Below are positions 12,126 to 39,662 of a stretch of DNA of 39,662 nucleotides, piece after piece. The position numbers were made by a program, and so were the translations under genes. Source of the DNA: Candidatus Poseidoniaceae archaeon (GTDB lineage Archaea > Thermoplasmatota > Poseidoniia > Poseidoniales > Poseidoniaceae); the NCBI GenBank assembly GCA_028356125.1, contig JAOMTZ010000018.1:1-39662 (forward strand), read 5' to 3'. The notes under the pieces were generated by a model. The model did not search any database. It was not told the origin of the DNA and saw only the letters and a list, made by a program, of their open reading frames with translations. Numbering within the stretch: position 1 is the first letter of the stretch; each line of letters starts with the position of its first letter.

Positions 12126-12845
12126 TTACTGTATCGAGAATCTCTGGTCTGCAGAGTTCCATAGAATCGGAGAGTATCCTAATCTGTGATGAGTGTGACG
12201 CATTTTGATTACACCTATCTTTCGTGTAATGTCGTCTCCAACTCTGTCCATAGTCAGATGCATTACTCCGTCTGACAGGTAATCTTCTACGCCATACTCT
12301 CCGAATTGTTTGTGGTCTTCACCGGTCATTTCACAGATGAAGAAAGAAGTAAGCTCCAATCTTCGACATGCTTCGAATAAACGGAATATTTCATCACGAG
12401 GGTTTTCCATCTTAGTCAGTGTAAAGAATGCTCCTAGAGAGTCGAATACTAGTAATTCGAATCCAATAGATTGGCGGTAAGAAGTGAGTTGTTTGATCAA
12501 TTGGCCCATCCAATCTATACGGTTGCTCATGCCTTGTTCATCTAATTGTACGCGCAAATCGGATAAATCGATGATAGCGATGCGGTTACGAACTCGGGGG
12601 TCGTCAACGTTCATGCCCATATTGGACATGTGAGATCTGAGAGAATCCTTGCCCTGTTCTAATGTCACATAGATTCCACTTGTCTCACCGTACAGAACAG
12701 CGTTATACAATAGCGAAAATGTAACGGAAGATTTCATTGCACCGGACTGTCCAGCAACTATGCAAATGTGCCCCTGCGGTATACCACCTTGCATATTTTC
12801 ATCTAATCCTGCGATGTGTGTTGGAATCCTTTCTATGTCACTCAC
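12126..12845 (-). CDS. KaiC/RadA-like single-domain RecA-fold ATPase
   Basis: The protein has 239 aa. A KaiC-type opening (ITHIAGLDENMQGGIPQG-like) leads to Walker A GQSGAMKSS (32-40). A catalytic Glu follows in YVTLEQG (E63), and Walker B is LLVFDSL (131-137). The C-terminus has an IKMRHTHH segment, as in KaiC-like ATPases. Single-domain archaeal KaiC homologues are usually of unknown function, with suggested regulatory or signalling roles. The start is GTG at 12845; no better ATG is nearby. The gene is divergent from maf across 63 bp and converges with glmS with zero spacing. Met at the usual T/V position of the P-loop (GAMKSS) is slightly unusual. A FlaH-like role is less likely, since no archaellum genes are nearby. 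Confidence 0.75.
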   Translation of the reverse strand: MSDIERIPTHIAGLDENMQGGIPQGHICIVAGQSGAMKSSVTFSLLYNAVLYGETSGIYVTLEQGKDSLRSHMSNMGMNVDDPRVRNRIAIIDLSDLRVQLDEQGMSNRIDWMGQLIKQLTSYRQSIGFELLVFDSLGAFFTLTKMENPRDEIFRLFEACRRLELTSFFICEMTGEDHKQFGEYGVEDYLSDGVMHLTMDRVGDDITRKIGVIKMRHTHHRLGYSPILWNSADQRFSIQ

Positions 12846-12908
12846 GTCGTCTCACCGGTACGGTGTAACAGCGATGTTCTCTTCAAGGTGACCCCCGAAC
12901 GGCTTGAT
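12846..12908. other. Divergent intergenic region between the KaiC-like gene and maf
   Basis: The 63-bp spacer must contain both promoters. It holds a small inverted repeat, CACCG-gta-CGGTG (12853-12865). No convincing TATA box is visible on either strand. Confidence 0.3.
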
Positions 12909-13460
12909 ATGGGAATCTGGTTAGCGAGTGGTTCTGAGAGGCGCGCTCAGATTCTCCGAGATAGGTACGGGGCCGTTCACGTCGAGGCATTACCTGGTGT
13001 GGATGAGACTCCACCAACGGGGTCTGTATCATCACAAGTACTAGCGATCTGCCGCCGTAAGGCAGCAGCAGTTCCAAGCGGCCATGGTTTCAACGCAGTT
13101 TTGGTCGCCGATACTATGGTTGGGGACCCTGATGATATCAATGCAGCCATGGGTAAGGCTACTGATGAATCGGGTGCTTTGTCCATGCTGAAACGACTTT
13201 CTGGTCGGCGTCACCAAGTATGGACTGCTACAGGTATCCAAATTTGTGGAGATTGGACCTTTTTCGTAGAATTTGCAATTGTGGAAATAGATGAACTAAC
13301 TATTGAAGAAATTGGTAATCTAATAGAATCTGGTTCATGGATTGGTAAAGCAGGTTCGTATGATTTAGCAGGAGATATGGGTAATCATGCAAGATTGATT
13401 GAAGGTGATGAACTTGCAGTGCTCGGATTTGCGCCAAGTGCATTGATACTTCTCGATTAA
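12909..13460 (+). CDS. maf: Maf-family nucleoside triphosphate pyrophosphatase
   Basis: The protein has 183 aa from ATG 12909, which gives the family opening MGIWLASGSERR. Upstream extension of the frame to 12816 would run into the divergent ATPase gene and has no Maf-like sequence. Visible Maf features are LASGSERR (substrate-binding loop), the VADTMV acidic position (D68), KATDESGALSMLKRLSGR, and a GKAGSYDLAG segment near the end. Maf proteins hydrolyse non-canonical or modified nucleoside triphosphates such as dTTP, UTP or methylated NTPs to monophosphates. In some bacteria they inhibit septation. VADTMV stands where many Maf proteins have ADTVV. The stop overlaps the opposing gene's stop in a TTAA. 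Confidence 0.83.
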   Translation: MGIWLASGSERRAQILRDRYGAVHVEALPGVDETPPTGSVSSQVLAICRRKAAAVPSGHGFNAVLVADTMVGDPDDINAAMGKATDESGALSMLKRLSGRRHQVWTATGIQICGDWTFFVEFAIVEIDELTIEEIGNLIESGSWIGKAGSYDLAGDMGNHARLIEGDELAVLGFAPSALILLD

Positions 13461-14776
13461 TCATCGGTTGTAAATCCAGGACCTTGTCCTGGATGTTTCA
13501 GGTATTGGTCATAAAACATGGGGGTTTTGTGCCAGTTATCTAAACTAAACATTACTTCTTTTATCCAATGCAGTAATATTAGAACATATGATACAGCATA
13601 CACGCCGATTCCAATTCTAGGATATTGAATAATAGATTCACCAGTATACCAACTGTTCATCATTGAATATGTTGTAATTATGCTACCTACATTTAGTGAC
13701 ATAAATATTAGCCAAGTTGTTTTTCTTCTATGGAGTGACAACCTTTTGTGGTCATCATGGAGGTAACTTGCAAAGCCCCACAGTGCCTGCATTGCAAATC
13801 CAAAAATTAAGATCCATCTGTAAAAAGACATCATGCCTTCCGTCGTCATAACCAAACCCATTTTTTCTAAGTAGGCGGATATACCGATAACAGGCAGCCA
13901 AAATAAAGATGCTAAAACCATCTTACTGTGAGGCTGACTGTCAACTATTTGGTCGATTATTTTCTTAGGATTCAGTGCAATGAAAATGAACAGATATGGA
14001 AACATTGCTAGTGATGCAGAGACTCTTTTTGAGATGTCTCCGTTTTCATATAAAGGAACTGAGATAATCGAGACGAGCATCAATATTAGCAACGTGGCAA
14101 ATATTTTTCCGAGATTATCTGAATCGATCAACTGCCAGTCCAATCGCCTGTTAAAGTGGGAAATAATCGTTGAAATAACTGCTAGTGGGATGAATAGGTC
14201 GAATATGACGGCTTCTGACAAATAAATCGAGGTTTCATTGTCACGAGCAACCCAAGACACCAGTGTAATCAGCCCTAAAATTGGTAAAATCATTCCAATA
14301 GCGTACGAAAAAGGACCTAATCTTCGTGAATCAACACTTCGACTTTTGAAGATCTTCAATGCAGGTGAGCCAAGTATAAACAGTGATGTCGCAAGGAGGG
14401 TAATCCCAACCGTCGCCATCGAGTAGAATATGTCTTCATCTCCAATCATTATTCCCAACATAATAGATAGTTGGCCCAACATATTCATTCCAACATAACT
14501 TCGCATCAAGCTCTTATCGAATATTTTTACATCGTATATCAGTGGAAGTATACTGAATCCGAGACCACAAATAATACACATCATCCATCCAAGTCCAAGT
14601 TGAATTTTTAAAGCGTGACGAATATGTTCTGGATTTGAAGTCAGGAATTCATTTCCATTCGTGCCAACCCAAATCGCAGTTATTATGAAACAAATCTGCA
14701 TTATTACGGCGGCAAGAATTAGGTCAACATATGAACCTGCAGCCAGATATTGAGCACTCGTACGCTCATCATCCAT
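13457..14776 (-). CDS. Multi-pass membrane protein of unknown function (about 12 TM helices)
   Basis: The protein has 439 aa from the ATG at 14776 (an in-frame TTG lies two codons upstream). About twelve hydrophobic helices span almost the whole length. The segment HALKIQLGLGWMMCIICGLGF followed by LPLIYDV recalls the His-bearing helix of heme-copper-oxidase-subunit-I-like membrane proteins such as the NnrS type. The paired histidines of a true oxidase are not seen, so this is only a fold guess. A putative leaderless promoter and a 15-bp palindrome lie just before the start, so the gene has its own regulated promoter. It is not merely a tail of the SepF operon, which ends 50 bp upstream. It converges with maf, and the stops overlap by 4 bp. 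Confidence 0.6.
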   Translation of the reverse strand: MDDERTSAQYLAAGSYVDLILAAVIMQICFIITAIWVGTNGNEFLTSNPEHIRHALKIQLGLGWMMCIICGLGFSILPLIYDVKIFDKSLMRSYVGMNMLGQLSIMLGIMIGDEDIFYSMATVGITLLATSLFILGSPALKIFKSRSVDSRRLGPFSYAIGMILPILGLITLVSWVARDNETSIYLSEAVIFDLFIPLAVISTIISHFNRRLDWQLIDSDNLGKIFATLLILMLVSIISVPLYENGDISKRVSASLAMFPYLFIFIALNPKKIIDQIVDSQPHSKMVLASLFWLPVIGISAYLEKMGLVMTTEGMMSFYRWILIFGFAMQALWGFASYLHDDHKRLSLHRRKTTWLIFMSLNVGSIITTYSMMNSWYTGESIIQYPRIGIGVYAVSYVLILLHWIKEVMFSLDNWHKTPMFYDQYLKHPGQGPGFTTDD

Positions 14777-14781
14777 TGGCA

Positions 14782-14796
14782 AGAACGAATCGTTCT
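14782..14796. promoter_or_regulatory. Perfect 15-bp palindromic operator candidate
   Basis: AGAACGA and TCGTTCT flank a single central base. The site lies between the candidate TATA box (14798-14806) and the ATG at 14776, covering the expected transcription start region. A dimeric repressor bound here would block the promoter of the membrane-protein gene. It would also form a short hairpin in any longer transcript. Confidence 0.5.
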
Positions 14797-14826: not shown

Positions 14827-15447
14827 TTACATCAGCAATGGGACTAATCCCAGGTCATTCCTGCCCTGATCCATGGTAACATCTCTTCCTGGAACGAGTA
14901 GTAATTTATCAGCATCGTCAAGTGCGTATATGTCAATACCAAGTTCATCCCCCATTTGCTTGAGACTTCTTCGACATGCATTAGTCTGTGTATCCATATG
15001 AATTAGACCATTTAGGTCTACGATGATAGTATCTCCTCTGCGCATTCTATCCTCTATTTTTCTTAGAGGTAGACGATGCATTTTGTCTGGCTCAACATAT
15101 CTCAATGCCCTATCTGGGAAATCTGTAGACGTTGATGAATAGTTGGACAGGTCATGAAATGCCACTCCATCTGGTGTCACAGGGCCAGTCCATCCTTTGG
15201 GTAATGTCGATGAGTGTCGAATTGGCTTTGGTATTGGAATTGGCGCTGGTGCTGAGTTGACTGCCGGGACTTCAGTAGTTGTAATCTCAGGTGGTTGAGT
15301 AAGTGGCTCGTCATCAGGGCTAACAATCGTGAGTTGGTGTCCTGTTGCTTCGGTCTTTTTAGCCTTCTTTTTCCTGGATTTTTTCATTGCCTCAGGGGGA
15401 GGTGCTTCAGGGTCAGGGAAACCAAAGAATTGCCAAAGTGTACCCAT
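14827..15447 (-). CDS. sepF: Archaeal SepF-like cell-division protein with long linker
   Basis: The protein has 206 aa. The first ten residues, MGTLWQFFGF, form an amphipathic membrane-targeting segment as in SepF. A Lys-rich stretch (KKSRKKKAKK, 22-31) and a long Pro-rich linker follow. The core, about residues 120-187, is the SepF/DUF552 fold: LRKIEDRMRRGDTIIVDLNG, then a helix and YALDDADKLLLVP. SepF anchors FtsZ to the membrane in archaea lacking FtsA. No ftsZ lies in this window. The linker contains LPKGWTG (82-88), a partial match to the LPxxWT motif in the tails of both upstream surface proteins. The gene follows the 1183-aa protein gene by 13 bp, so it is probably cotranscribed with it. 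The N-terminal linker is much longer than in compact archaeal SepF proteins. Confidence 0.78.
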   Translation of the reverse strand: MGTLWQFFGFPDPEAPPPEAMKKSRKKKAKKTEATGHQLTIVSPDDEPLTQPPEITTTEVPAVNSAPAPIPIPKPIRHSSTLPKGWTGPVTPDGVAFHDLSNYSSTSTDFPDRALRYVEPDKMHRLPLRKIEDRMRRGDTIIVDLNGLIHMDTQTNACRRSLKQMGDELGIDIYALDDADKLLLVPGRDVTMDQGRNDLGLVPLLM

Positions 15448-15460
15448 TATGTTTCACTGC

Positions 15461-18400
15461 TCAAATGTCCAAGTCGTCCAATAGATCGGCTAGGGCCTGC
15501 GATGCCTGTGTCGGTGCTGGTTCTTGAACCATCGTCTGATTGAGTAGTGATGGAGCCGGTTCTGCATAGGTCTGAGTTTGAACCGGTTCTGGTTGAGCAT
15601 AAGCAGGTGCTGCTGCAGGTTGTGCATAAGATGGTTCAGGCGGTAAGTTAGCTAGGTATTGTTCACCATAGTATGACCATTGTTCCATGGTCCATCCCAC
15701 TGGTAATCCTGCTGCAGGAATCGGCGGTCCGCTGTTAGCCATTTCGGCCGGTGCTGTAGGAATCGGCTCTTGAGTTTGAGCAGGTGGAGAATCCCATCCA
15801 TAATCAGGCATTGATTTTGTTTCGATTATCTCGGAGTCACTTTCTCTTCCTCGTAGTAGAAGTAATGCAAGAAGAACAACCATTACAACTCCTAAAATTG
15901 AGACCGCTGCAGTTGTACTTGTCATCCCGAACAGACCTTCAGGAGGTTTCTCTTCTACTTCCACCACTACAGTTGCAGTATTCATTTTCCCATCATCATC
16001 GATTACAGTAAGGTTAACGAAGTATTTGCCAGGTGTGTTGAACTTGATTGTGTAATTTTCACCAAATCCATCTTGTGTTGCTCCCGCTGTATTTGGGTCA
16101 TCCCAGATAAATTCCAAACTGGCTCTGTCGGTAGGTGAGTCGGTTGAATCACTTCCACTGAATGTAATAGAGTCTCCTTCAGTGATTACGAAACCACCTT
16201 CAGGTACGAATATGCTTGCAGCAGGAGGACGGTTAACGATGGTGACATCGATTGAGAAGGTATCTGTTGCGTTATCATCATCCCACACATTAGCAGTAAT
16301 TGTACGGAGTCCGGGGGAGGTCCAAGCATACACCAGTTCGGGTCCTTCTACATCACAGTCATCGGTTGCGATTCCATTTTCATCGGAATCGATCGATACG
16401 ATAAGGTCCCAGCAATATCGTAGTTCGTCAGCATCAGCAACATCCGTTGCAAATGCGGTTAAGTTCAAGACTTCATCCTCGAATAATGCCTGTTGAGCAG
16501 GTAATGAATCTAGAACAGGTTCAATGTTGTTAACACGAACATAGCCCATCACTTCATCGCTTACTATTCCATCATTGTCTGTTACAAATGCTCTAATCGT
16601 GTGCAGGCCAGAGTCGCCCCATGCCGCATCAATTGTGGAATCCGGTCCTGATGTTGTAACCGTCCAGTTTTGGTCAAAGTCATCTGGGTACCAGGTGATG
16701 AGTAAACTCTCTTTGTCAGATAGTGTATCATCACCACTAATCTGCAGAGATGCAATCACGTCTTCGTTGATTGTCCAAGTACCATCTTCTGCAGGGATGT
16801 AGGGTATTCCATCTACGGTGAATAACATCTCGCCGATAGTTGGTGCTACATTCAGCACCTCATAGGTCAGTATATCTGAAACAGATGCGTTGTCATCATC
16901 TGTGACAACAACTTCAATTTGGTGAACTCCTTCTTCTTCAGGATTGAAAGTACAGTATGGTCCAAACAGTCCTTCATCACAAGCACTATCTGGCCATGTA
17001 ATTGTTACATGTTGGCCCATAGGTGACACTGTATCGATATCTCCACTATCTGTAGCGTTGAAGGTTATCGCTTCACCTGCATTGACAGCAGGAGTAACCG
17101 TTGATAGGTTAACATACGGGTCACGATTTAGAATTGTAGCATCCATTACCATCTCGACTTCATCAAGTTCATTATCAACTACGATTACCTTGACTTCCCA
17201 TTCACCATCGTCAGCCCATGCCCAACTTGTCCTACAGTTTGGTGCATCAATGAATTCGGTTCTGACACCATCTTGAATTTCGAAGAAGCACCCTACGCTT
17301 CCCCCGTCAACATCATATGAGCCAGAAGCGTCGATTGATACATTTTCAAATGTGTAGACATCGTCCAGTAAAACCATATTCGCTACAGGCATTCTTCCAA
17401 TGAAAACGTCTAGCGATGCACCATTGTTAGATCTGTTAGCATCTGCGGTTACTGTTTCATCAGGGTCAACCATGAATGAAAGAGTCTTGATTCCAACAGG
17501 AGTGTTACTTGGGACTGTCCAATTAACATCAACACGAGCTTCAGAATATGGAGATAGAGCAGGTAGGACTCCTCTAACAGTCGAACCATCAGGAGTAGTA
17601 ATTTCCATCTCGGTTGCAGGAGAGGTTAACACTCCTCTATTTTGCGCAGGTACTGAGAACTGCATCATGTCCCCCGGCAATGCATTGTAGCCACTAGCCT
17701 GTGAAAGAATCAATGAATCATTTCCGCGTGTGCGTGTGACAATCATAGAATCTGGTTTAGCAACTAAGTCTACTCCAACAACGTTCAGATCCATTACAAT
17801 AGTCGAGGCGCCAACTACCTTGTTAACAGGGTCCCAAATAATGACACCATTACTAGTCCAATCATCAGATGCGTTGGAGTGGTCACGACTTGACCCAACA
17901 TCGAAGGTTGGATTTACCTTCCCATCACTATCTGTAGTTAAACTCATTATTATGCCATCAATTTCGTAACGAAGTTGCAAATTCTTACCAACTTCATTTC
18001 CTCCATTAACTGTCATGTGACCTTCAACAGGAATGTCTGAATCTGGCAATGTAGCGATGTATTGTGGCGTTACATCGATAATTAGATTTCTAATACCTGG
18101 TGATGATGAAGCAACATTTCCTGATGAATCCACAGGCGTGTAAGTCTTTAATTTCCAATCGATTTGGAATCCAGCAGGGTTTACAATTCTGTACCAAGCG
18201 AATGTTCTAACCGCTGGACAGTACCATTCGAAACCGCCTGCTGAGCCGGTATTATTCCAATTGTTCACTTTGTATGAGTCTGAACATCCAGTGTATGCTA
18301 TCGACGACCCATCTTCAGTTGGACTCCCGTCTGCAGTTACTTGGTAAGTTGTGTTGTCGTCGACGAAAGGTGTGTCGAATGAGGTTGGGTCAAAGTAATC

Positions 18401-19012
18401 AGAAGAACCGGTGACATTGGTACCTGAGTCATAACCACTTGTCCACTGATCACCTTTCCGTAATGGGAAATCATACTTCTCTCGTGGTGGCTCGTATACA
18501 GTTGTGAATGTAATGTCAGCAAGGTTTTGACTCAAGAATCCGAGGTTATATGGTGCGAAATCAACACCTAGGAAGAACGCTGAATCCCATACAGATAAAT
18601 CTCTGGCTAGAAGAATATCTGTTCCTTCATAGTCAATATCTAATCGACCCGAAATACCCTCTAACGTGGCACCATTATTTCCGGAACTAAATTCACCTTC
18701 TATATCTACCTCGTAAACAAGAGTCTGAGTTCCTTGAATTGTTTCAAATCTGATATCAACAACTTCCATTGTTGTGTCGCCAGAAAGTGTGCTTATCGAT
18801 GCGGACACATTTGCAGATTGTATCAATCCAGCAACATCGAACAGGGTTTCATACACCCATTTGTCTCCGATTCTCCAATCGGGGACATCATGAACGCCCG
18901 GTACTTCTTCACCGGCGAATTTGGTTTCCTTAATTTCCAAATTATCAATCATTGATAGGGGCCCATATGCAGTCATCAAGACGAGAATAAAGATGGGAAT
19001 AGCCTGTCGCAT
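15461..19012 (-). CDS. Giant PKD-repeat surface protein, membrane-anchored, paralogue 2 of a tandem pair
   Basis: The protein has 1183 aa. A signal peptide (IPIFILVLMTAYGPLS) begins the protein. A unique N-terminal domain follows (WRIGDKWVYE, YDFPLRKGDQWTSGYDSG, FEWYCPAVRTFAW) and then a CARDB-like domain. A series of PKD/Ig-like repeats comes next, with YxWxDDG and acidic DSDENGIATDDCD loops that probably bind Ca2+. One TM helix lies at about 1033-1055. The cytosolic tail of about 128 residues contains GLPVGWTMEQWSYYGEQYL, a YAQP-rich stretch and an acidic end, LADLLDDLDI. It is homologous over its length to the protein encoded just upstream, so the pair is a tandem duplication. The function is probably cell-surface adhesion, scaffold or substrate binding (inference). 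A perfect stem-loop abuts the ATG at 19012. Confidence 0.75.
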   Translation of the reverse strand: MRQAIPIFILVLMTAYGPLSMIDNLEIKETKFAGEEVPGVHDVPDWRIGDKWVYETLFDVAGLIQSANVSASISTLSGDTTMEVVDIRFETIQGTQTLVYEVDIEGEFSSGNNGATLEGISGRLDIDYEGTDILLARDLSVWDSAFFLGVDFAPYNLGFLSQNLADITFTTVYEPPREKYDFPLRKGDQWTSGYDSGTNVTGSSDYFDPTSFDTPFVDDNTTYQVTADGSPTEDGSSIAYTGCSDSYKVNNWNNTGSAGGFEWYCPAVRTFAWYRIVNPAGFQIDWKLKTYTPVDSSGNVASSSPGIRNLIIDVTPQYIATLPDSDIPVEGHMTVNGGNEVGKNLQLRYEIDGIIMSLTTDSDGKVNPTFDVGSSRDHSNASDDWTSNGVIIWDPVNKVVGASTIVMDLNVVGVDLVAKPDSMIVTRTRGNDSLILSQASGYNALPGDMMQFSVPAQNRGVLTSPATEMEITTPDGSTVRGVLPALSPYSEARVDVNWTVPSNTPVGIKTLSFMVDPDETVTADANRSNNGASLDVFIGRMPVANMVLLDDVYTFENVSIDASGSYDVDGGSVGCFFEIQDGVRTEFIDAPNCRTSWAWADDGEWEVKVIVVDNELDEVEMVMDATILNRDPYVNLSTVTPAVNAGEAITFNATDSGDIDTVSPMGQHVTITWPDSACDEGLFGPYCTFNPEEEGVHQIEVVVTDDDNASVSDILTYEVLNVAPTIGEMLFTVDGIPYIPAEDGTWTINEDVIASLQISGDDTLSDKESLLITWYPDDFDQNWTVTTSGPDSTIDAAWGDSGLHTIRAFVTDNDGIVSDEVMGYVRVNNIEPVLDSLPAQQALFEDEVLNLTAFATDVADADELRYCWDLIVSIDSDENGIATDDCDVEGPELVYAWTSPGLRTITANVWDDDNATDTFSIDVTIVNRPPAASIFVPEGGFVITEGDSITFSGSDSTDSPTDRASLEFIWDDPNTAGATQDGFGENYTIKFNTPGKYFVNLTVIDDDGKMNTATVVVEVEEKPPEGLFGMTSTTAAVSILGVVMVVLLALLLLRGRESDSEIIETKSMPDYGWDSPPAQTQEPIPTAPAEMANSGPPIPAAGLPVGWTMEQWSYYGEQYLANLPPEPSYAQPAAAPAYAQPEPVQTQTYAEPAPSLLNQTMVQEPAPTQASQALADLLDDLDI

Positions 19013-19031
19013 GGATATACGTAGTATATCC
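19013..19031. promoter_or_regulatory. Perfect 8-bp inverted repeat abutting the start of the 1183-aa gene
   Basis: GGATATAC and GTATATCC flank a 3-nt centre and fill nearly all of the 20-bp gap between the tandem surface-protein genes. The last stem base touches the ATG at 19012. It may be an operator or a translational or decay hairpin giving different expression of the two paralogues. Confidence 0.5.
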
Positions 19032-19032
19032 G

Positions 19033-22000
19033 TTACTCTTTATTCTGTTCGTTGCCGGTTTCTTGCATCTCAAGGTACTGATGACCGTAATGTTGCCACT
19101 GTTCTTCTGTCCAATCAGGAGGCAATCCTCCCTCCGGAATTGGTGGAGAATCAAGCAATTGATCAATTTCTTGAGCGAAAGTCTCAGAACTTCCAAACAG
19201 GCCCATGTCAGGGGCTTCCATAGGTGCTTCAATCATTGGAATATCGTCATCATCCCAAACCGATTTGCGTTTCCTTTGACCTTTTTTCAGGAAAATTACT
19301 AGCCCTGATATTACAAGCGCAATCATGACTAACTGAATGAAAGGATTTGCTTCATCCCCCGTTAGGGATTCAATGACTTCTTCGAATGCAGTTCGATCGG
19401 GTGAGTCCACTTCAATGACTGTACTCTTACTACTTGGTTTGAGTATTTCTTCATCCCATGCAATAGCCTTCACCGTGAACTTCCCTGCTCTAGGGAATTC
19501 GTATTGGACTACAGACCCAACTAAATCTGCATCATTGTCAACAATTCCATCACCGTCACTGTCCACGGAACAATCTACATCCCAGACCACTGTTAGGTAT
19601 TCTCTATCAATACTGGAATCAATAGTCATAGAAGCGTCAAGAGTTACCACTTCACCAGCTATTGCAGTACTAGGAACCTTCATTCTGATAATTGGTGGTA
19701 GATTCAATACAGTAACAGAAGCGGTTGAAGAGTTTCTTGCTCCATCATCGTCAGTAGCATGGAATACAATATTGTAAGTTCCAGCATTTTGCCATGACCA
19801 AGTAAGGTTTGTTCCTTCGACATCACAGTCATCGTCCGCTGAACCAATACCGTCTGTATCAGAACCTGGGTCGACATCCCAACAAATGATTAGTGAATCT
19901 ATGTCTGATGATGTGTCCCATGCTGCACCTGAAAGGCTAATGCTTTGGCCTTCTGCAACAGGCATCACTTCTGGTAATGGTTCGATTTGTGGTTCCAAGT
20001 TTTGAACATCAATCCAGCGTTCAACCCAGCCACTATCTTCGCCCTCGGAATCAATAGCTTTGACCAGAATTGTCTGCATGCCAGATTCACTCCAAACAGC
20101 AGGGATTCTCGATTCCCTTCCGTCTGTATCTACTCCAAAAGACCATTCATATCGTAACTCTTCAAGGTCATCGATGGAATCCTCAGCTCGTGCAGATAGT
20201 TCAACAGACTGATCTTCTTGAATATGCCAAGTCATTTGGCCTGTGGCATCAATCAGGTTGCCATATTCATCCCACATAGTTACAGCTACGTCATGTGGGG
20301 CGATATTCGTGAACTCGATATCTATCGTGGAATATGTTTGATTTCCATCATCATCAGTTCCAACGGCTGTGAATGTTTGCAGTCCTTCTTCCCATGCAGT
20401 AGTTGTGCATACTCTCGTATAGTATCCTTCATCGCATTTGGCATTGGGCCAATGTATGTCGACAAGGCCAGGCCATGCGTCTTCTGAGTCGGTGTCATTA
20501 GCAAATACATACAGAGTTACAGGGTGTTCTACTTTCACCTGGCTTCTCTGCGATTGAATAGAAACGCTTGGAGCACGGTTGTAAATTTCAACTTCAAGAA
20601 TCTCCTCAGTAGAGTCGCCTTCTTCATCATTGACAGTCACAAGAATAGAATAAATCCCATCATCCACCCATGTCCAGTTGATGTAACATCCACTTCGCAT
20701 CACTCTTTGGTGAGCCATTGAATATGATCCATCATCGAATTCAATATCGAACATACACCAAACATCTCCGCCATCTTCATCGAAACTAGAAGATGCATCG
20801 ATCAGTATTTTTTCGTTAGTCCAAGCACTCTGATTGCTTGCAACATATGTAGGTGCACTACCAATGAAGATAGGTACAACTCCAATGTCGTTGGATTGGT
20901 CTGCATCATTCGGGTTAGAGAGTTGACGGTCAACTTCCCAAACTACGGTTTGATTATCGATACTAGCATTGGAATCAATACTCCATTCAATCTCAAAGAG
21001 ATACTGCTCGTATAGTTCGAGTGCAGGTAGCGTTTCGACTACTTCGTAGCCATCAGGGAATGTGATATGTGTAGTAGTTGCAATACTGGTGGTAATTCCT
21101 CGGTTGTAAACTGGTAATTGGATAGTTAAGTTGTCACCTGGCAATACATTGTATCCCGAAATAGAGTTCAAAGTAGTAACTTCACCGCTACGATTACGAA
21201 GAATACTAACTCTTTCTAAAGCAGCAACTAAGTCCAGACCGACTATGTTTTCATCTAGAGTAATTGTCGATACTCCATACATCCCACCACTAGATGCAAC
21301 GATGCCATGGCTTGCCCAATCAACAGTCGTAGCGGAAGTGTCAGTAGCTTCCCCTACTGAGATAATAGCCCACGCACTTCCATTGGATGAAGTTACAGCA
21401 CTGGTGGTGAACCCATTTGCCTCATGTCTGATTTCAACATCTAGTCCTGATTGAGGATTACCTGCCGAATCAGTAATGTTAGCCCACACTTCAATTGGGG
21501 TATTCAGAGCGGTTATTTGAGTTGAAAGTTCTACATCGAGGTTCATGTTTCGATATCCCGGGTTGGTATTTGCAGTAACTCCTGATGACGCAACAGGCAG
21601 ATATTGCTTCAGTCTAAAATCAATTACTAATCCTATATCTTCTTGAGTGTTAGACCAAGCAAAATTCCTTACTTCTGGGCAGAACCATTCGTAGGATGTT
21701 TCAGTTCCATTGTCATCATAAGATGTCAGTTCATAGGAAGCATTACATCCACCATATCCTATTTGTTCTCCAAGATCATTAATCGGTTTGCCAGTATCTG
21801 TGATTTCCCAATTCGTGTGATTAGCACCACTTGTTGGTTGAGGGAAAGGCGTGATGTAATCTGAAGAGCCTGACCATGCGGTTGATGAAACATAGGAAGT
21901 GTTCCAGGTCTCTCCTATTCTGAGTGGGAAATCATAATTTTCACTCATCGGGTCATATGTGGTACTGATTGTAATATCTGCAACTTGTTGAGTGAGTGAT

Positions 22001-22449
22001 GATATTCCATAAGGAACATAGCGGACATTTAGTGATAAATCGGAAGATAATTTTGCTAAGTCTGAAACTCTACGCACTTCATCGACTTGATATTGGATGT
22101 ACAAGTTGCCAGTATAGGATTCAAGGGCAACTCCACCTTTGTCAAAATCTGCTTTTGATGAGGTCAGGTAAACCAATGTCGAAATCCCATCAATGTCAAC
22201 TTCGGTAACAGAATCAACAGTTGTAGTGGCATCACCCGTGATTGTCCCAACTACTGCGTCTACTCCAGCGTCCTGAATTAGAACAGTTGGGTCGAAATAA
22301 CCAGAGTAAATCCACTTGTCTCCAACACGCCATGTGACCACGTCTGAAACACCTGGGTCTTCGCTTCCAATGCCTCCTGCACTAACTTGCGGGAAGACCA
22401 CAAGGGACGAAAGCAGAAGGATGAGAGCCATCCCTACTTCTCGGCGCAT
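19033..22449 (-). CDS. Giant PKD-repeat surface protein, membrane-anchored, paralogue 1 of a tandem pair
   Basis: The protein has 1138 aa. The signal peptide is MALILLLSSLVVFPQVSAG. The N-terminal domain shares landmarks with the downstream paralogue: WRVGDKWIYS, YDFPLRIGETWNTSY, YEWFCPEVRNFAW and LKQYLPVASSG. Several PKD/Ig-like domains follow, with DSDGDGIVDNDAD-type calcium-binding loops. A TM helix lies at about 1034-1055, then a basic stop-transfer KKGQRKRK. The 80-residue cytosolic tail carries LPPDWTEEQWQHYGHQYL, the same motif as in the paralogue. The protein is therefore a type I surface protein with a conserved cytosolic signal. It heads the three-gene SepF operon, and a TATA element lies 28 nt before the ATG. 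Similarity between the paralogues is clear in the N-terminal domain and weaker in the repeats, so the duplication is not recent. Confidence 0.75.
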   Translation of the reverse strand: MRREVGMALILLLSSLVVFPQVSAGGIGSEDPGVSDVVTWRVGDKWIYSGYFDPTVLIQDAGVDAVVGTITGDATTTVDSVTEVDIDGISTLVYLTSSKADFDKGGVALESYTGNLYIQYQVDEVRRVSDLAKLSSDLSLNVRYVPYGISSLTQQVADITISTTYDPMSENYDFPLRIGETWNTSYVSSTAWSGSSDYITPFPQPTSGANHTNWEITDTGKPINDLGEQIGYGGCNASYELTSYDDNGTETSYEWFCPEVRNFAWSNTQEDIGLVIDFRLKQYLPVASSGVTANTNPGYRNMNLDVELSTQITALNTPIEVWANITDSAGNPQSGLDVEIRHEANGFTTSAVTSSNGSAWAIISVGEATDTSATTVDWASHGIVASSGGMYGVSTITLDENIVGLDLVAALERVSILRNRSGEVTTLNSISGYNVLPGDNLTIQLPVYNRGITTSIATTTHITFPDGYEVVETLPALELYEQYLFEIEWSIDSNASIDNQTVVWEVDRQLSNPNDADQSNDIGVVPIFIGSAPTYVASNQSAWTNEKILIDASSSFDEDGGDVWCMFDIEFDDGSYSMAHQRVMRSGCYINWTWVDDGIYSILVTVNDEEGDSTEEILEVEIYNRAPSVSIQSQRSQVKVEHPVTLYVFANDTDSEDAWPGLVDIHWPNAKCDEGYYTRVCTTTAWEEGLQTFTAVGTDDDGNQTYSTIDIEFTNIAPHDVAVTMWDEYGNLIDATGQMTWHIQEDQSVELSARAEDSIDDLEELRYEWSFGVDTDGRESRIPAVWSESGMQTILVKAIDSEGEDSGWVERWIDVQNLEPQIEPLPEVMPVAEGQSISLSGAAWDTSSDIDSLIICWDVDPGSDTDGIGSADDDCDVEGTNLTWSWQNAGTYNIVFHATDDDGARNSSTASVTVLNLPPIIRMKVPSTAIAGEVVTLDASMTIDSSIDREYLTVVWDVDCSVDSDGDGIVDNDADLVGSVVQYEFPRAGKFTVKAIAWDEEILKPSSKSTVIEVDSPDRTAFEEVIESLTGDEANPFIQLVMIALVISGLVIFLKKGQRKRKSVWDDDDIPMIEAPMEAPDMGLFGSSETFAQEIDQLLDSPPIPEGGLPPDWTEEQWQHYGHQYLEMQETGNEQNKE

Positions 22450-35354: not shown

Positions 35355-36836
35355 ATGCCTCTGCGTGTACATGACACCCGCCGACGGGAAAAAGTGGATT
35401 TTACCACTATGAACCCCGGTGTTGTAAACATGTATGTTTGTGGTGTTACAGTGTATGATTTGTGCCACTTGGGGCATGCTAGGTGTTACCTTGCATTCGA
35501 TTTAATTCACCGTTGGTTAGAGAAGTCCGGTTATGATGTAAATTATGTACAAAACTTCACTGACATTGATGACAAGATCATCAAACGTGCAAATGAGACC
35601 GGTGAGGATTGGCGTGAAATCGTTGAGAATAACATCGCTACATACTACAGGGATATGGATGCACTAAACATCCTTCGTGCTGACAAGTACCCTAGGTGTA
35701 CAGAATATGTCGACGAGATGATTGCAATAACTTCTGACCTAATCGAAAAAGGAAATGCTTACGCTGTCGATGATGGCGTCTATTTCAGTGTTGAGAGCGC
35801 TCCTGAAAAGTATGGGGAATTAACTGGACAAAGCATCGATGCTGTTCGTAGTGGTGCAGGTGGAAGAGTTGGTAAAACCGGTTCAGGTAAGCGAGACCAC
35901 AAGGATTTCGCACTTTGGAAGGCAGCCAAGCCTGGCGAGCCGACTTGGGATTCACCATGGGGTCCTGGACGTCCTGGATGGCACATTGAATGTACTGCTA
36001 TGTCAATGGATTCATTTGGAGAACAATTCGATATTCACGGCGGAGGGCATGATTTGTTATTCCCGCACCATGAAGCTGAAATCTTCCAAGGTGAATGTCA
36101 TACAGGTTGCTCACCAGTAGTACATCATTGGTTGCATAATGGATTCGTCAATATCGATGGGGAGAAAATGAGTAAGTCACTAGGTAACTTCTGGACGATT
36201 TCCGAAATTTTAGAAAAGGTAGACCCGCATGTTTTGCGTTTCTCTTTGATTAATGCACATTACCGTTCTCCAATTGATATGAACGAGCAATTGCTCAAGG
36301 ATGCTGAAAAGAATCATGTTCGTTTGATGGGAGTTTACAAGGCGGCTTTGGAATTGATGGGGCTCAATTGCCCTCCGCTTCCAGAAGGTGATATAACCTC
36401 ACAGATTCCATTGGTAAAGAGTCTAGGGCTTCTCGAAAAGATGGCTCAAGGCTTTGCAATTGCAATGGATGATGATTTCAATTCTAGAGAAGCCTGTGCG
36501 AAAGTGTTGGGTGCTCTTAGAGAGATGAGTAAGATGCTTGGTTCATTAGAAGGAGATGACTTAGGAGCATATGCTCAGCACTCAGTCGAATGGTTAGAAG
36601 ATACTGCAGGAGCTGTACTTAATGTCTTACCTTCTCGCGAACAAACTCTAGCAGAACCAGAAGAAGACCCAAGGCGTGCTGAGATTGCTGACCAAGTCGA
36701 TTCTCTAATCATCAAAAGAAGTACGGCAAGGGCTGACAAAGACTGGCCTGCAGCAGATGCAATTCGTGATGAATTGGCAGCGCTAGGAGTAGTCGTCACC
36801 GACACTGCAGAAGGGCCGATCTGGGATCTAGTCTAA
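35355..36836 (+). CDS. cysS: Cysteinyl-tRNA synthetase
   Basis: The protein has 493 aa. It is a class I aminoacyl-tRNA synthetase. Residues 25-50 hold NMYVCGVTVYD with the zinc ligand Cys29. The HIGH-type motif is HLGHAR (38-43). FTDIDDKIIKRA is a CysS hallmark. GRPGWHIECTAMS and GGGHDLLFPHHE supply further zinc ligands. The KMSKS motif (KMSKSLGNFW) is at about 272-276. A DALR-like helical anticodon-binding end follows. The enzyme charges tRNA-Cys in the cytosol. Length is normal. Presence of CysS means this archaeon does not depend only on the SepRS/SepCysS route. It converges with the amidohydrolase gene with a 4-bp stop overlap (CTAA). Confidence 0.97.
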   Translation: MPLRVHDTRRREKVDFTTMNPGVVNMYVCGVTVYDLCHLGHARCYLAFDLIHRWLEKSGYDVNYVQNFTDIDDKIIKRANETGEDWREIVENNIATYYRDMDALNILRADKYPRCTEYVDEMIAITSDLIEKGNAYAVDDGVYFSVESAPEKYGELTGQSIDAVRSGAGGRVGKTGSGKRDHKDFALWKAAKPGEPTWDSPWGPGRPGWHIECTAMSMDSFGEQFDIHGGGHDLLFPHHEAEIFQGECHTGCSPVVHHWLHNGFVNIDGEKMSKSLGNFWTISEILEKVDPHVLRFSLINAHYRSPIDMNEQLLKDAEKNHVRLMGVYKAALELMGLNCPPLPEGDITSQIPLVKSLGLLEKMAQGFAIAMDDDFNSREACAKVLGALREMSKMLGSLEGDDLGAYAQHSVEWLEDTAGAVLNVLPSREQTLAEPEEDPRRAEIADQVDSLIIKRSTARADKDWPAADAIRDELAALGVVVTDTAEGPIWDLV

Positions 36837-39662
36837 TCTTTAGGCGGTTCCAGTGGTGGTAATTCTGGTACGAATTCCACTTCTTTTTCGATAGCTTCAG
36901 CCAATATTTCCTCATCTTTAGACATGAGAATTATAGTAATCGCCGCAACTAGAATAACTATCATCACCACAGCTAGTGTGACAATAGGATCACCACTTTC
37001 GGATTCTGCAGCATCGGTTACATCCTCGTCACAAATTCCAGTACATGCTTCACCATCTGTATTATCGGTTCCACCATTGTTGTCTGTTCCGCCGTTATTG
37101 TCGGTTCCACCATTATTATCCTCGTAAGTGCAACTACCATCTTCGATAACAGCTTGTGAATTGTAATTCAATGCGTCAGAGTCTTTGCATCCCAAAACTG
37201 GATCAGGATCGGTGTTCGAGTTGTTAGTGTAATCCGAGTCTGTCATGTATGGCCGATCACCATTTGCATCGTAAGTGATGTCATAGTAGTCGTATAGTTT
37301 GGACATGTCGATGTGATAGTTAGCGTGTGCTGAGCGATTAATGACATCGAAGTATCTCGAATCATCCATAGTGTAAATTGGGTCAAGGGTCATGCTCTTC
37401 AGGTGGTTGACATTATCTCTGTAATCTCCATCGAAGGTTGTTGCCAACCAATCTTCAAGTTGTGAGTCAGTCATGTCTTCTACTTCTTGCCAGTTTGCCT
37501 TGATGTCATCGAATTGGTTTAGCATTGCCATGGATAACCCTGATTCGATATTTTCCCAGGTTTGCATCCCTTCAACTTCAGAAGTTGAAGTAACATCCAC
37601 TGCTTTACTGAACCCGCTACCGTTGATGTATTCCCAATCATCTCCCTTCATTGCAGTCATTATGTCTACATCTCCGAAAACAGCCTTTCCTTGAACAACA
37701 GTTAGTCTGATGTCAGGATCGATTGCATCGATTAAGTTTCGATATGGATTGTCGTGGAATGTGTCAACAACCACAAGGTCTGCATACATTCCTGCTTCGA
37801 TTTGACCAACAAATCCTTGCCAACTTGCAATCTCTGCAGCGTTACTAGTTACCATCTGAACTAATTCATAGTCACTGAAATGGCCATCAAGAGATTCTCT
37901 GTTCCACATGTCTGCAACCTTCAACTCATGGAGGTTATTCTTCGAGCCACTAGGTCCCCAATCAGGTGCTAGCGAGATAGTTACTCCAGCGTTATCCGCT
38001 GCAACTACGTCGGTTGTATCTCCATACAATAGTAGATTGGAAATCGGCGACCATACAAGACCTGCATCAACTTGGGCCATCTTACTGAATTGGCTTGCGT
38101 CAAGAGCAGTGCCGTGAATTACTACTGTTTCATCCATGATTAACCCCTTGTTGTACAGAGCATCGAATTCAGATTTACTACTAGAGTCTACACCTTCTGA
38201 TAGATGGACGAACCATGCATTAAGTGTCCCAGAGTTGCTCTTGTCGATTAGGTGCTGGCCACCGTAATCAGCATCTGCTGCTCCACAGACTGCGCATGTG
38301 TACATGCCATCTTGTCCGAAGTTATACAATTCGACATTTCGAGATAGCATGCTATCCCAAGAGTCGGTTCCACTGGTAGGTGAACCCTGAACCGCTGTAA
38401 CTCCTCCAGCAACTGCTTGAACTTCTGCGTACTTCATTTGCTCTGATGCCATATCCCATCGGCTGTAAGATTGGACATTGTTTTTCATCCAAGTAATACT
38501 TGGTCCGTAATCATAGTTGTTACCCCATTGGTATCGGTTTGTGTAACCACCTTCGTCAGATTGTTGTGAACTTGACAAGTGTACGTCAAAGTCCCATAGA
38601 GGAATGTGGTTGTAGTGCATGTGATTGTGTAAGTCGATTAAACCAGGGTAGATTGTAGCATCAGTGTCGTGTACTGTAATACCATCTGTATTTCTTGGTG
38701 GAATTTGTCCGTCAGCCCAAACAGCAACAATCATTCCATCTTCGATCATGATGTTTCCGTTTTCAATAACATTGTTCTCGCCAGTCATTGGTACGACTCT
38801 GCCTTGTAGAATGTATGCTGACTCAGACGTATCTGCCTTCTTGTAACATGTTCCTTGTCGGTCAGCAGGGTTTGCATCGTTCTTGCCAAGAGTGCCATCT
38901 TCATTTAATGTGTAAGCAACATCGTAGAATGAATCCTTTGCCGGGTATGAAATCATGCTCTGGATTGTACCATCACTATCTTTCAATACAGCGAAGTCAT
39001 CTTCGAAGTAGTCGAATATAATCTGGGTTTTCGAGCGGAAAAATGTTATTGATTCGCCTGCAGCTAAAGTTGTATTCCAACCTATTGAACAAGGCGCACT
39101 TCCGCCTGCCAAATTGTCATCTAATGTCCAATCTGAAATGTCAACATCGGAGGTTCCGTCATTTGTTAGTTGGATATATTGCTCACTGTTAGAGAATACT
39201 TCTCCATCTCCATCTAAATCGACACCACCGAAATCTTCTCCAGATGATGAGGCTAGAATCTCTGAGATTCTAACACCGAGATAATTATTTTCGCTTACAG
39301 TCCACTCACCTACTCCTTGAGAAGAACCACCGCCACCGTTGTTGCCACCGTTTCCTCCTGAGTTTTGGTCTTCTCCTGGTGTACAGATACCAATTGTTGC
39401 AGATGGGTTAGGGTCGTTCTTTTCCAACATACCATTAGCACCGGCAGTGTATACCTGGTCCCAATATGAATCGTTAGCAGGGTAAGTGAAGGTACTCTGA
39501 ACTTCACCACTTGAATCAGTTAGTATTGCAGAATCGTCATTGAAGAAATCAAATTCGATGTTTGTGTCTGCACGGTAGAATGTGATTGATTGACCTGCTG
39601 TGATTGTTAAGTCACCGATTAGACAAGAACCACTTCCCCAGTTAGCCATGTCATCTATGGTC
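36833..39662 (-). CDS. Secreted amidohydrolase-family protein with lamin-tail-like repeats, membrane-anchored (N-terminus outside window)
   Basis: The frame remains open to the window edge, so at least the signal peptide and part of the first repeat are missing. The visible part, 942 residues or so, begins with two lamin-tail-like beta repeats. Both show QSITFYRADT or ESITFFRSKT, FDxFxDDxAxL and a KNDxNP end. The amidohydrolase barrel has the metal ligands HNHMH (about residue 340), VIHG (about 510) and the APDW Asp (about 562). A family C-terminal AGMYADLVVVD loop follows. After the catalytic domain come a GCKDSDALNYN...DGSC segment, three NNGGTD repeats, a TM helix (about 886-908) and an acidic, Pro-ending cytosolic tail (ELPPLEPP). 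It probably hydrolyses extracellular cyclic amides or dipeptides (inference). Confidence 0.8.
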   Translation of the reverse strand, partial: TIDDMANWGSGSCLIGDLTITAGQSITFYRADTNIEFDFFNDDSAILTDSSGEVQSTFTYPANDSYWDQVYTAGANGMLEKNDPNPSATIGICTPGEDQNSGGNGGNNGGGGSSQGVGEWTVSENNYLGVRISEILASSSGEDFGGVDLDGDGEVFSNSEQYIQLTNDGTSDVDISDWTLDDNLAGGSAPCSIGWNTTLAAGESITFFRSKTQIIFDYFEDDFAVLKDSDGTIQSMISYPAKDSFYDVAYTLNEDGTLGKNDANPADRQGTCYKKADTSESAYILQGRVVPMTGENNVIENGNIMIEDGMIVAVWADGQIPPRNTDGITVHDTDATIYPGLIDLHNHMHYNHIPLWDFDVHLSSSQQSDEGGYTNRYQWGNNYDYGPSITWMKNNVQSYSRWDMASEQMKYAEVQAVAGGVTAVQGSPTSGTDSWDSMLSRNVELYNFGQDGMYTCAVCGAADADYGGQHLIDKSNSGTLNAWFVHLSEGVDSSSKSEFDALYNKGLIMDETVVIHGTALDASQFSKMAQVDAGLVWSPISNLLLYGDTTDVVAADNAGVTISLAPDWGPSGSKNNLHELKVADMWNRESLDGHFSDYELVQMVTSNAAEIASWQGFVGQIEAGMYADLVVVDTFHDNPYRNLIDAIDPDIRLTVVQGKAVFGDVDIMTAMKGDDWEYINGSGFSKAVDVTSTSEVEGMQTWENIESGLSMAMLNQFDDIKANWQEVEDMTDSQLEDWLATTFDGDYRDNVNHLKSMTLDPIYTMDDSRYFDVINRSAHANYHIDMSKLYDYYDITYDANGDRPYMTDSDYTNNSNTDPDPVLGCKDSDALNYNSQAVIEDGSCTYEDNNGGTDNNGGTDNNGGTDNTDGEACTGICDEDVTDAAESESGDPIVTLAVVMIVILVAAITIILMSKDEEILAEAIEKEVEFVPELPPLEPPKD
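37067..37120 (-). repeat. Three 18-bp tandem repeats encoding NNGGTD
   Basis: Units start at 37067, 37085 and 37103 and differ by a few bases, mostly at third positions. They form a flexible linker just outside the membrane anchor of the amidohydrolase. Copy number could vary between strains. Confidence 0.8.

What the first reader, a model, noticed from the sequence alone, without database searches (positions are those of the whole stretch)
14827..22449. SepF operon with two giant tandem surface proteins that share a cytosolic LPxxWTxEQW motif
Two PKD-repeat surface proteins and SepF are packed with 20-bp and 13-bp gaps behind one promoter. Both surface-protein tails carry LP-x-x-WT-x-EQW-x-x-YG-x-x-YL, and SepF's linker has LPKGWTG. 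I infer a system that couples the FtsZ anchor to the outer surface layer. The tails could dock on the division machinery or on a common cytosolic adaptor that recognises WTxEQW. I know no described module of this kind.
Basis: partly seen in the sequence, partly recalled or inferred. Interest (0 to 1): 0.72.

Follow-up and report, generated by a model that had tools for sequence, protein, structure and literature searches.

The report
SepF paired with giant surface protein
In a group of marine archaea the gene for the cell-division anchor SepF sits right behind a gene for a giant membrane-anchored surface protein, which suggests that division and the outer protein coat are built together; the short motif first noticed is a general tail of many surface proteins there and is not specific to this pair.

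Summary
In detail: two 1,100-1,200 aa PKD surface proteins and a SepF protein lie head to tail (20- and 13-nt gaps), and both tails carry LPxxWTxEQWxxYGxxYL. SepF identity, missed by Pfam, is confirmed by fold and profile comparison. WTxEQW is an order-wide tail element (144 of 145 Poseidoniales genomes, up to 10 copies, several kinds of surface protein; 3 of 111 other Thermoplasmatota genomes), so it does not mark a SepF link. SepF's LPKGWTG belongs to a different linker element. The gene pair itself is strongly conserved: a PKD-B homologue lies before sepF in 40 of 40 regions with upstream sequence (21 genera; one with a broken frame), and in the sister family 14 of 14 sepF genes found follow a gene ending in a hydrophobic helix. 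In Poseidoniaceae the sepF neighbour also ends in LDDLD[LIF]-COOH (78 of 78 records, variants allowed), resembling SepF-bound parts of FtsZ tails (LDDFI, DLDV); a read-through fusion fold gave no sign of docking. Best reading: SepF made together with a transmembrane surface partner; physical bridging is plausible but unproven.

The parts
19033..22449 (-). PKD-A: giant surface protein (1138 aa), tandem paralogue of PKD-B
   Evidence: PF18911/PF00801 over cut-off; 33% identical to PKD-B over 1150 aligned columns
19282..19347 (-). PKD-A transmembrane helix (residues about 1035-1056)
   Evidence: hydropathy
19072..19131 (-). PKD-A tail element GGLPPDWTEEQWQHYGHQYL
15461..19012 (-). PKD-B: giant surface protein (1183 aa), the conserved sepF neighbour
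   Evidence: PKD and CARDB over cut-off; homologue before sepF in 40 of 40 regions with upstream sequence, 21 genera
15845..15910 (-). PKD-B transmembrane helix (residues about 1035-1056)
   Evidence: hydropathy
15653..15712 (-). PKD-B tail element AGLPVGWTMEQWSYYGEQYL
   Evidence: helix in the AF2 model of a relative's tail
15464..15484 (-). PKD-B C-terminal peptide LLDDLDI-COOH
14827..15447 (-). sepF (206 aa)
   Evidence: fold match to 3ZIG, 3ZIE, 7AL1 and other SepFs; hhalign 95.9% to PF04472-type SepFs; relative in 143 of 145 genomes of the order
15418..15447 (-). SepF N-terminal stretch MGTLWQFFGF, likely membrane-targeting helix
   Evidence: conserved; AF2 helix 4-8; function by analogy with PMC8178401
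15148..15204 (-). SepF linker element LPKGWTGPVTPDGVAFHDL (the LPKGWTG of the finding)
   Evidence: W.G in 78 and P..W in 77 of 78 records, none with W[TS]xEQ; FHDL aligns with the [YF]xDL element of other SepFs
13457..14782 (-). fourth same-strand gene, 441 aa hydrophobic protein, 44 nt after sepF
   Evidence: homologue just downstream of sepF in 51 loci

Best explanation
This is a conserved gene pair in which the FtsZ membrane anchor SepF is made together with a giant PKD/CARDB surface protein that spans the membrane near its C-terminus, probably by co-transcription and translational coupling (shown: order, strand, spacing, homology; inferred: co-expression). The surface protein most likely works at or near the division site as the extracellular partner of the SepF-FtsZ ring, so that the protein coat is laid down or held in step with constriction (inferred). 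In Poseidoniaceae its cytosolic tail has two conserved islands in a variable linker. The WTxEQW helix is a general tail module shared by several kinds of Poseidoniales surface protein and is probably read by a common cytosolic or membrane-associated factor (inferred). The C-terminal LDDLD[LIF] peptide is the better candidate for a specific contact, possibly with SepF's FtsZ-tail groove (hypothesis, not supported by the one fold test). PKD-A is a tandem duplicate of PKD-B kept in some genera.
For: 41 sepF regions from 21 genera: 40 have upstream sequence, and in all 40 the upstream protein is a PKD-B homologue: 37 as ORFs over 800 aa (29-78% identity over at least 1000 aligned columns) and three cut by contig ends (L104, L126, L325); it ends within about 100 nt of sepF except L111, where the C-terminal frame is broken. 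A second, partly overlapping set of 80 titled records (best 80 of 138): 78 have an upstream ORF, spacing 5-13 nt, 78 of 78 end in a DDLD-type peptide. Sister family f3: 14 of 21 genomes gave a PF04472 match and in 14 of 14 loci sepF follows an overlapping or abutting same-strand gene with a C-terminal hydrophobic stretch (peak hydropathy 1.46-2.62). Pende et al. call archaeal sepF context 'more variable' (PMC8178401 section 9) and give LDDFI and DLDV as groove-bound parts of FtsZ tails (section 8).
Against: Neighbourhood is not contact. In f3 the one full-length neighbour is related to PKD-B only through PKD domains, and in 10 of 14 loci only 6-9 residues follow the helix, so no tail docking is possible there. 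By the same mechanical rule 3 of 19 SepF loci of other Thermoplasmatota also have a short ORF with a hydrophobic stretch within 60 nt (L190, L199, L205; 141-160 aa, no Pfam hit), and one (L197) a 389-aa membrane protein with weak Ig-like hits 176 nt upstream. LDDLD ends also occur on a second surface protein family not beside sepF in the loci seen (6 of 6). The second Poseidoniales family has other acidic ends. FtsZ1-type proteins keep a modified tail (IEFVN for GIDFV), so SepF's groove probably still serves FtsZ. In the AF2 read-through fusion the LLDDLDF end has pLDDT about 60 and shows no sign of docking.
Confidence: 0.5

Rival explanations
1. Co-expression only: the pair is kept because both products are needed in growing cells or in fixed proportion, and the surface protein is an ordinary coat subunit that never touches SepF.
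For: The f3 neighbour seen in full is not a full-length homologue and most f3 tails are short; WTxEQW and LDDLD ends also occur on surface proteins elsewhere in the genome; the fusion fold showed no docking.
Against: The pairing is kept in all 21 genera sampled and the sister family while downstream genes change, and another helix-bearing gene holds the same place in f3, which points to a functional tie with SepF itself.
Confidence: 0.35
2. One reading: WTxEQW is a division-specific docking signal, and SepF's LPKGWTG is part of the same recognition system.
For: The motif is real, on the cytosolic side and conserved; 76 of 78 Poseidoniaceae sepF neighbours carry it in some form.
Against: Up to 10 copies per genome on at least six kinds of protein besides PKD-A/B; lacking in 15 of 18 second-family sepF neighbours; SepF element lacks W[TS]xEQ in 78 of 78 records.
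Confidence: 0.07
3. The 206-aa protein is not SepF but an unrelated small protein.
For: No Pfam or NCBIfam hit; PF04472 finds nothing in the own genome; phmmer against the PDB shows only weak WW-domain-like and other matches; PF04472-type search with the Poseidoniales profile finds only 1 of 26 outgroup genomes.
Against: First 11 fold matches are SepFs, probability 1.00, 5 of them at E 0.001 or better; hhalign 95.9%, E 6e-9; best PDB profile hit 3ZIE, though at E 0.035 only; PF04472 touches 6 of 37 members, best E 0.051; N-terminal helix and, as a rule, one copy per genome.
Confidence: 0.04

Closest known systems
Archaeal SepF-FtsZ anchor (Methanobrevibacter smithii, Haloferax volcanii)
   Same: SepF with N-terminal helix, linker and SepF core; occurs with FtsZ proteins
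   Different: Core diverged beyond Pfam's reach; fixed gene pair with a giant surface protein, whereas PMC8178401 reports a more variable archaeal sepF context
Archaeal divisome proteins CdpA, CdpB1 and CdpB2 (Haloferax)
   Same: Further proteins needed for FtsZ-based division
   Different: CdpB1/B2 are PRC-barrel proteins (PMC12186497, passages seen); that CdpA is a membrane protein is recalled. The passages seen mention no PKD surface protein
PKD/CARDB archaeal surface proteins
   Same: Hydrophobic N-terminus, beta-sandwich repeats, C-terminal TM helix
   Different: Fixed place before sepF and the conserved cytosolic tail islands
FtsZ C-terminal domain as SepF ligand
   Same: LDDLD[LIF] resembles LDDFI and DLDV, parts of FtsZ tails in the SepF groove (PMC8178401 section 8)
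   Different: Carried by a surface protein; ends at the carboxyl terminus without the C-terminal half of the FtsZ peptide; no binding shown

Membership tests
SepF | SepF core fold | tested here: met
   AF2 core blocks pLDDT above 90; Foldseek first matches 3ZIG, 3ZIE, 6SAT, 7AL1, 3ZIH; hhalign 95.9%
SepF | Pfam PF04472 over its cut-off | tested here: not met
   No hit for the window protein; 6 of 37 relatives, best E 0.051. Read as divergence because the fold and profile-profile tests are met
SepF | N-terminal membrane-targeting helix and variable linker | tested here: met
   (sequence and model only)
SepF | binds FtsZ and membrane | not testable with these tools
   needs experiment
FtsZ-CTD-like SepF ligand (PKD-B C-terminus) | short acidic-hydrophobic C-terminal peptide like LDDFI or DLDV | tested here: met
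   78 of 78 titled records with variants; exact pattern directly before sepF in 60 of 72 f1 genomes (searches compared by eye); second family f2 has other ends
FtsZ-CTD-like SepF ligand (PKD-B C-terminus) | docks in SepF's groove | tested here: inconclusive
   AF2 read-through fusion: end at pLDDT about 60, no sign of docking; no coordinates available, four fused rows only, no two-chain prediction possible
Common tail module of Poseidoniales surface proteins | WTxEQW element C-terminal to a TM helix in several protein kinds per genome, near-restricted to the order | tested here: met

The most novel reading that the evidence does not exclude
SepF in Poseidoniaceae is a two-way adaptor: it anchors FtsZ inside and, through an FtsZ-tail-like LDDLD[LIF] carboxyl terminus, grips a giant transmembrane surface protein, so that the Z-ring pulls directly on the external protein coat.
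Probability: 0.2. Interest if true: 0.85.

Novelty: new variant of a known kind. Interest (0 to 1): 0.6.

Why it matters
How archaeal division machinery is connected to the protein coat outside the membrane is open. A surface protein fixed next to sepF throughout a marine order gives a named candidate and short peptides that can be tested in vitro. The order-wide WTxEQW tail also points to a possible common handling system for surface proteins that I found in none of the papers searched.

Tried and rejected
Own idea that Poseidoniales FtsZ had lost its SepF-binding tail: rejected. FtsZ proteins of other Thermoplasmatota mostly end in GIDFV-type peptides and the corresponding Poseidoniales type in a modified IEFVN-type end (22 of 24); the other type ends mostly FQRFD. 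The FtsZ1/FtsZ2 labels are mine.

SepF linker as a WW domain: phmmer gave only E 0.24-0.75 to YAP1-related entries; not pursued. SepF linker and surface tail as one motif: rejected (its records were partly selected by T[PA][DE]G[EVD][AP]FHD, so conservation of TxDG and FHD there is inflated). Tail element as a known Pfam domain: no hit for two 30-aa peptides, sub-threshold hits for a tandem form. AF2 fusion docking: no sign.

Literature (open-licence library only): SepF, archaea, FtsZ, anchor: 57 papers, 20 listed; Poseidoniales with SepF: 1 paper, passages seen, unrelated; Poseidoniales, PKD, surface: 0; SepF, S-layer, gene cluster: 5, listing; GWTMEQW: 0; Marine Group II surface proteins: 2, listing; SepF, transmembrane: 30, 10 listed; 1; 104, 8 listed. 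Read: PMC8178401 abstract, passages and sections 8 and 9; PMC12186497 and PMC11733289 passages only.
Full report
Observation. The three genes are as described: PKD-A 22449-19033, PKD-B 19012-15461, sepF 15447-14827, all on the minus strand, with gaps of 20 and 13 nt. A fourth same-strand gene follows sepF after 44 nt. Both tails carry LPxxWTxEQWxxYGxxYL; its DNA form occurs twice in the window and in none of 100 shuffles. Both proteins have PKD domains over Pfam's cut-off, PKD-B also CARDB. Hydropathy gives an N-terminal stretch and a strong helix at 1035-1054 in both, plus a borderline peak in PKD-B at 399-417; the motif lies about 50 residues after the helix.

Is it SepF? Pfam, NCBIfam and PF04472 give nothing for the window protein. 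An alignment of 37 relatives gave an AF2 model with a confident core. Its first 11 PDB matches are SepF structures, 5 of them at E 0.001 or better. A profile-profile comparison with 15 PF04472-type SepFs of the phylum gives 95.9% probability and E 6e-9. Weaker lines: hmmsearch against PDB sequences gives 3ZIE first but at E 0.035; PF04472 touches 6 of 37 members, best E 0.051; the Poseidoniales profile finds a match in 1 of 26 outgroup genomes. A relative occurs in 143 of 145 genomes of the order. I take it as a diverged SepF.

The WTxEQW element. In a phylum-wide draw it occurs in 34 of 34 genomes of the order and in 3 of 111 others; the two outside loci examined lack the LPxGW and YG context. 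The own, incomplete genome has 5 copies. Of 35 loci of the order examined, 33 have a hydrophobic helix within 220 residues upstream, one is a broken frame and one masked, and in all the motif starts at most 77 residues from the C-terminus. Ten further proteins from four genomes all have a helix before the motif, nine also an N-terminal hydrophobic stretch. By BLAST they fall into six kinds without full-length matches between kinds or to PKD-A/B. AF2 gives a helix over MEQWNYYGEQWLAAN at pLDDT about 85. This is a general tail module of the order and not a SepF signal.

SepF's LPKGWTG. In 78 records with a readable linker, 78 have W.G and 77 P..W in the 14 residues before FHDL, and none has W[TS]xEQ. 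These records were partly selected by the TxDG..FHD stretch, not by the tryptophan. FHDL aligns with the [YF]xDL element of other archaeal SepFs. The likeness to the tail motif is superficial.

The gene pair. In 41 sepF regions from 21 genera 40 have upstream sequence (L122 has none). In all 40 the upstream protein is a PKD-B homologue: 37 over 800 aa and three cut ones. It ends next to sepF, except in L111 where the C-terminal frame is broken. PKD-A-like second copies (over 40% identical to PKD-A) are found in six genera (g1-g4, g6, g10), with a second copy of unclear kind in g16. In a second, partly overlapping set of 80 titled records (best 80 of 138; titles Candidatus Poseidoniaceae or Poseidoniales, or only Euryarchaeota archaeon), 78 have an upstream ORF, with 5-13 nt spacing. 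In family f3 of the same class 14 of 21 genomes gave a PF04472 match, and in 14 of 14 loci an overlapping or abutting same-strand gene ends in a hydrophobic stretch. Only one of these proteins was seen in full, an M6-peptidase/PKD protein related to PKD-B through PKD domains only; of three partial ones, two give sub-threshold PKD or CARDB hits and one none. As control, of 19 SepF loci elsewhere in the phylum three have a short ORF (141-160 aa, no Pfam hit) with a hydrophobic stretch within 60 nt, and L197 a 389-aa membrane protein with weak Ig-like hits at 176 nt; none shows a large surface gene abutting sepF in the stretch held. Pende et al. describe archaeal sepF context as more variable (PMC8178401 section 9).

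The second tail element. In Poseidoniaceae (tool label f1) the sepF neighbour ends in LDDLD[LIF]: 78 of 78 records allowing LDDFD, LLDGLD, LLGDLD, WDDLD and LDDLE variants. W[TS]xEQW is about as constant there: 72 as such, three as WTMDQW, one with a masked residue, two without. In 68 aligned tails, chosen for having such an end, the linker varies while the two islands are 82-100% constant at their main positions, the last residue 75%; the selection inflates the figure for the end. The exact DNA pattern for the end lies directly before sepF in 60 of 72 f1 genomes (searches compared by eye); the other 12 are variants, broken or missing cases. In the second family (f2) 15 of 18 neighbours lack WTxEQW and the ends differ, often EDIEALFEE. 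A second surface family of about 800 aa also ends LDLDDLDL or LDDLDV (6 of 6 loci examined). Pende et al. name LDDFI and DLDV as the parts of FtsZ tails in the shared SepF groove (section 8). This likeness is the ground for the bridging hypothesis.

Tests against it. One FtsZ type of the order still ends in a modified form of the archaeal GID motif (22 of 24 examined; outgroups mostly GIDF-type), so the groove is probably in use. In a read-through fusion of the L102 tail with its SepF (residues 55-61 = LLDDLDF) a helix covers 50-56 and the end has pLDDT about 60. No coordinates were available, only four rows were fused and the carboxyl end was not free, so this test is weak, but it does not support docking. 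In f3, 10 of 14 neighbours have only 6-9 residues after the helix, so the ancestral reason for the pairing cannot be a long tail.

Conclusion. A robust pairing of sepF with a giant surface protein that I found described in none of the papers searched; an order-wide surface-protein tail module; and a plausible but unproven FtsZ-tail-like peptide on the sepF partner. f1, f2 and f3 are tool labels; I recall f2 and f3 as Marine Group IIb and Marine Group III, but no call named them. Poseidoniaceae for f1 is taken from record titles.

Noticed in passing
L135-L140 (e.g. L135:2602-4965): A second, ~800 aa surface protein family with weak CARDB-like hits ends in LDLDDLDL or VDLDDLDV, the same kind of carboxyl end as the sepF neighbour.
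   Followed up: partly
window 12816-13460 and 12845-12126: A Maf-like gene (PF02545) and a KaiC-type ATPase lie downstream of sepF and keep that place in several Poseidoniaceae loci.
   Followed up: partly
window 13457-14782: A 441-aa hydrophobic protein without a convincing Pfam hit follows sepF on the same strand; a homologue sits just downstream in 51 loci, 116 loci having at least 600 nt downstream (two sets that overlap in genomes).
   Followed up: partly
L100, L102, L103, L106-L134 (many): A gene that looks like TATA-binding protein (recognised from recall, no family search) lies upstream of the surface gene in many genera.
   Followed up: no
L064: One tail carries a tandem form of the element (IPSGWTQEQY ... 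MPDGWTHEQW), suggesting a small repeating helical unit.
   Followed up: no
window 36833-39649: An amidohydrolase with a lamin-tail domain (LTD) in the same protein.
   Followed up: no
L090, L154 (G000:C12): A third, ~312 aa tubulin-family protein occurs in the order beside two FtsZ types; in the incomplete own genome it is the only one found.
   Followed up: no
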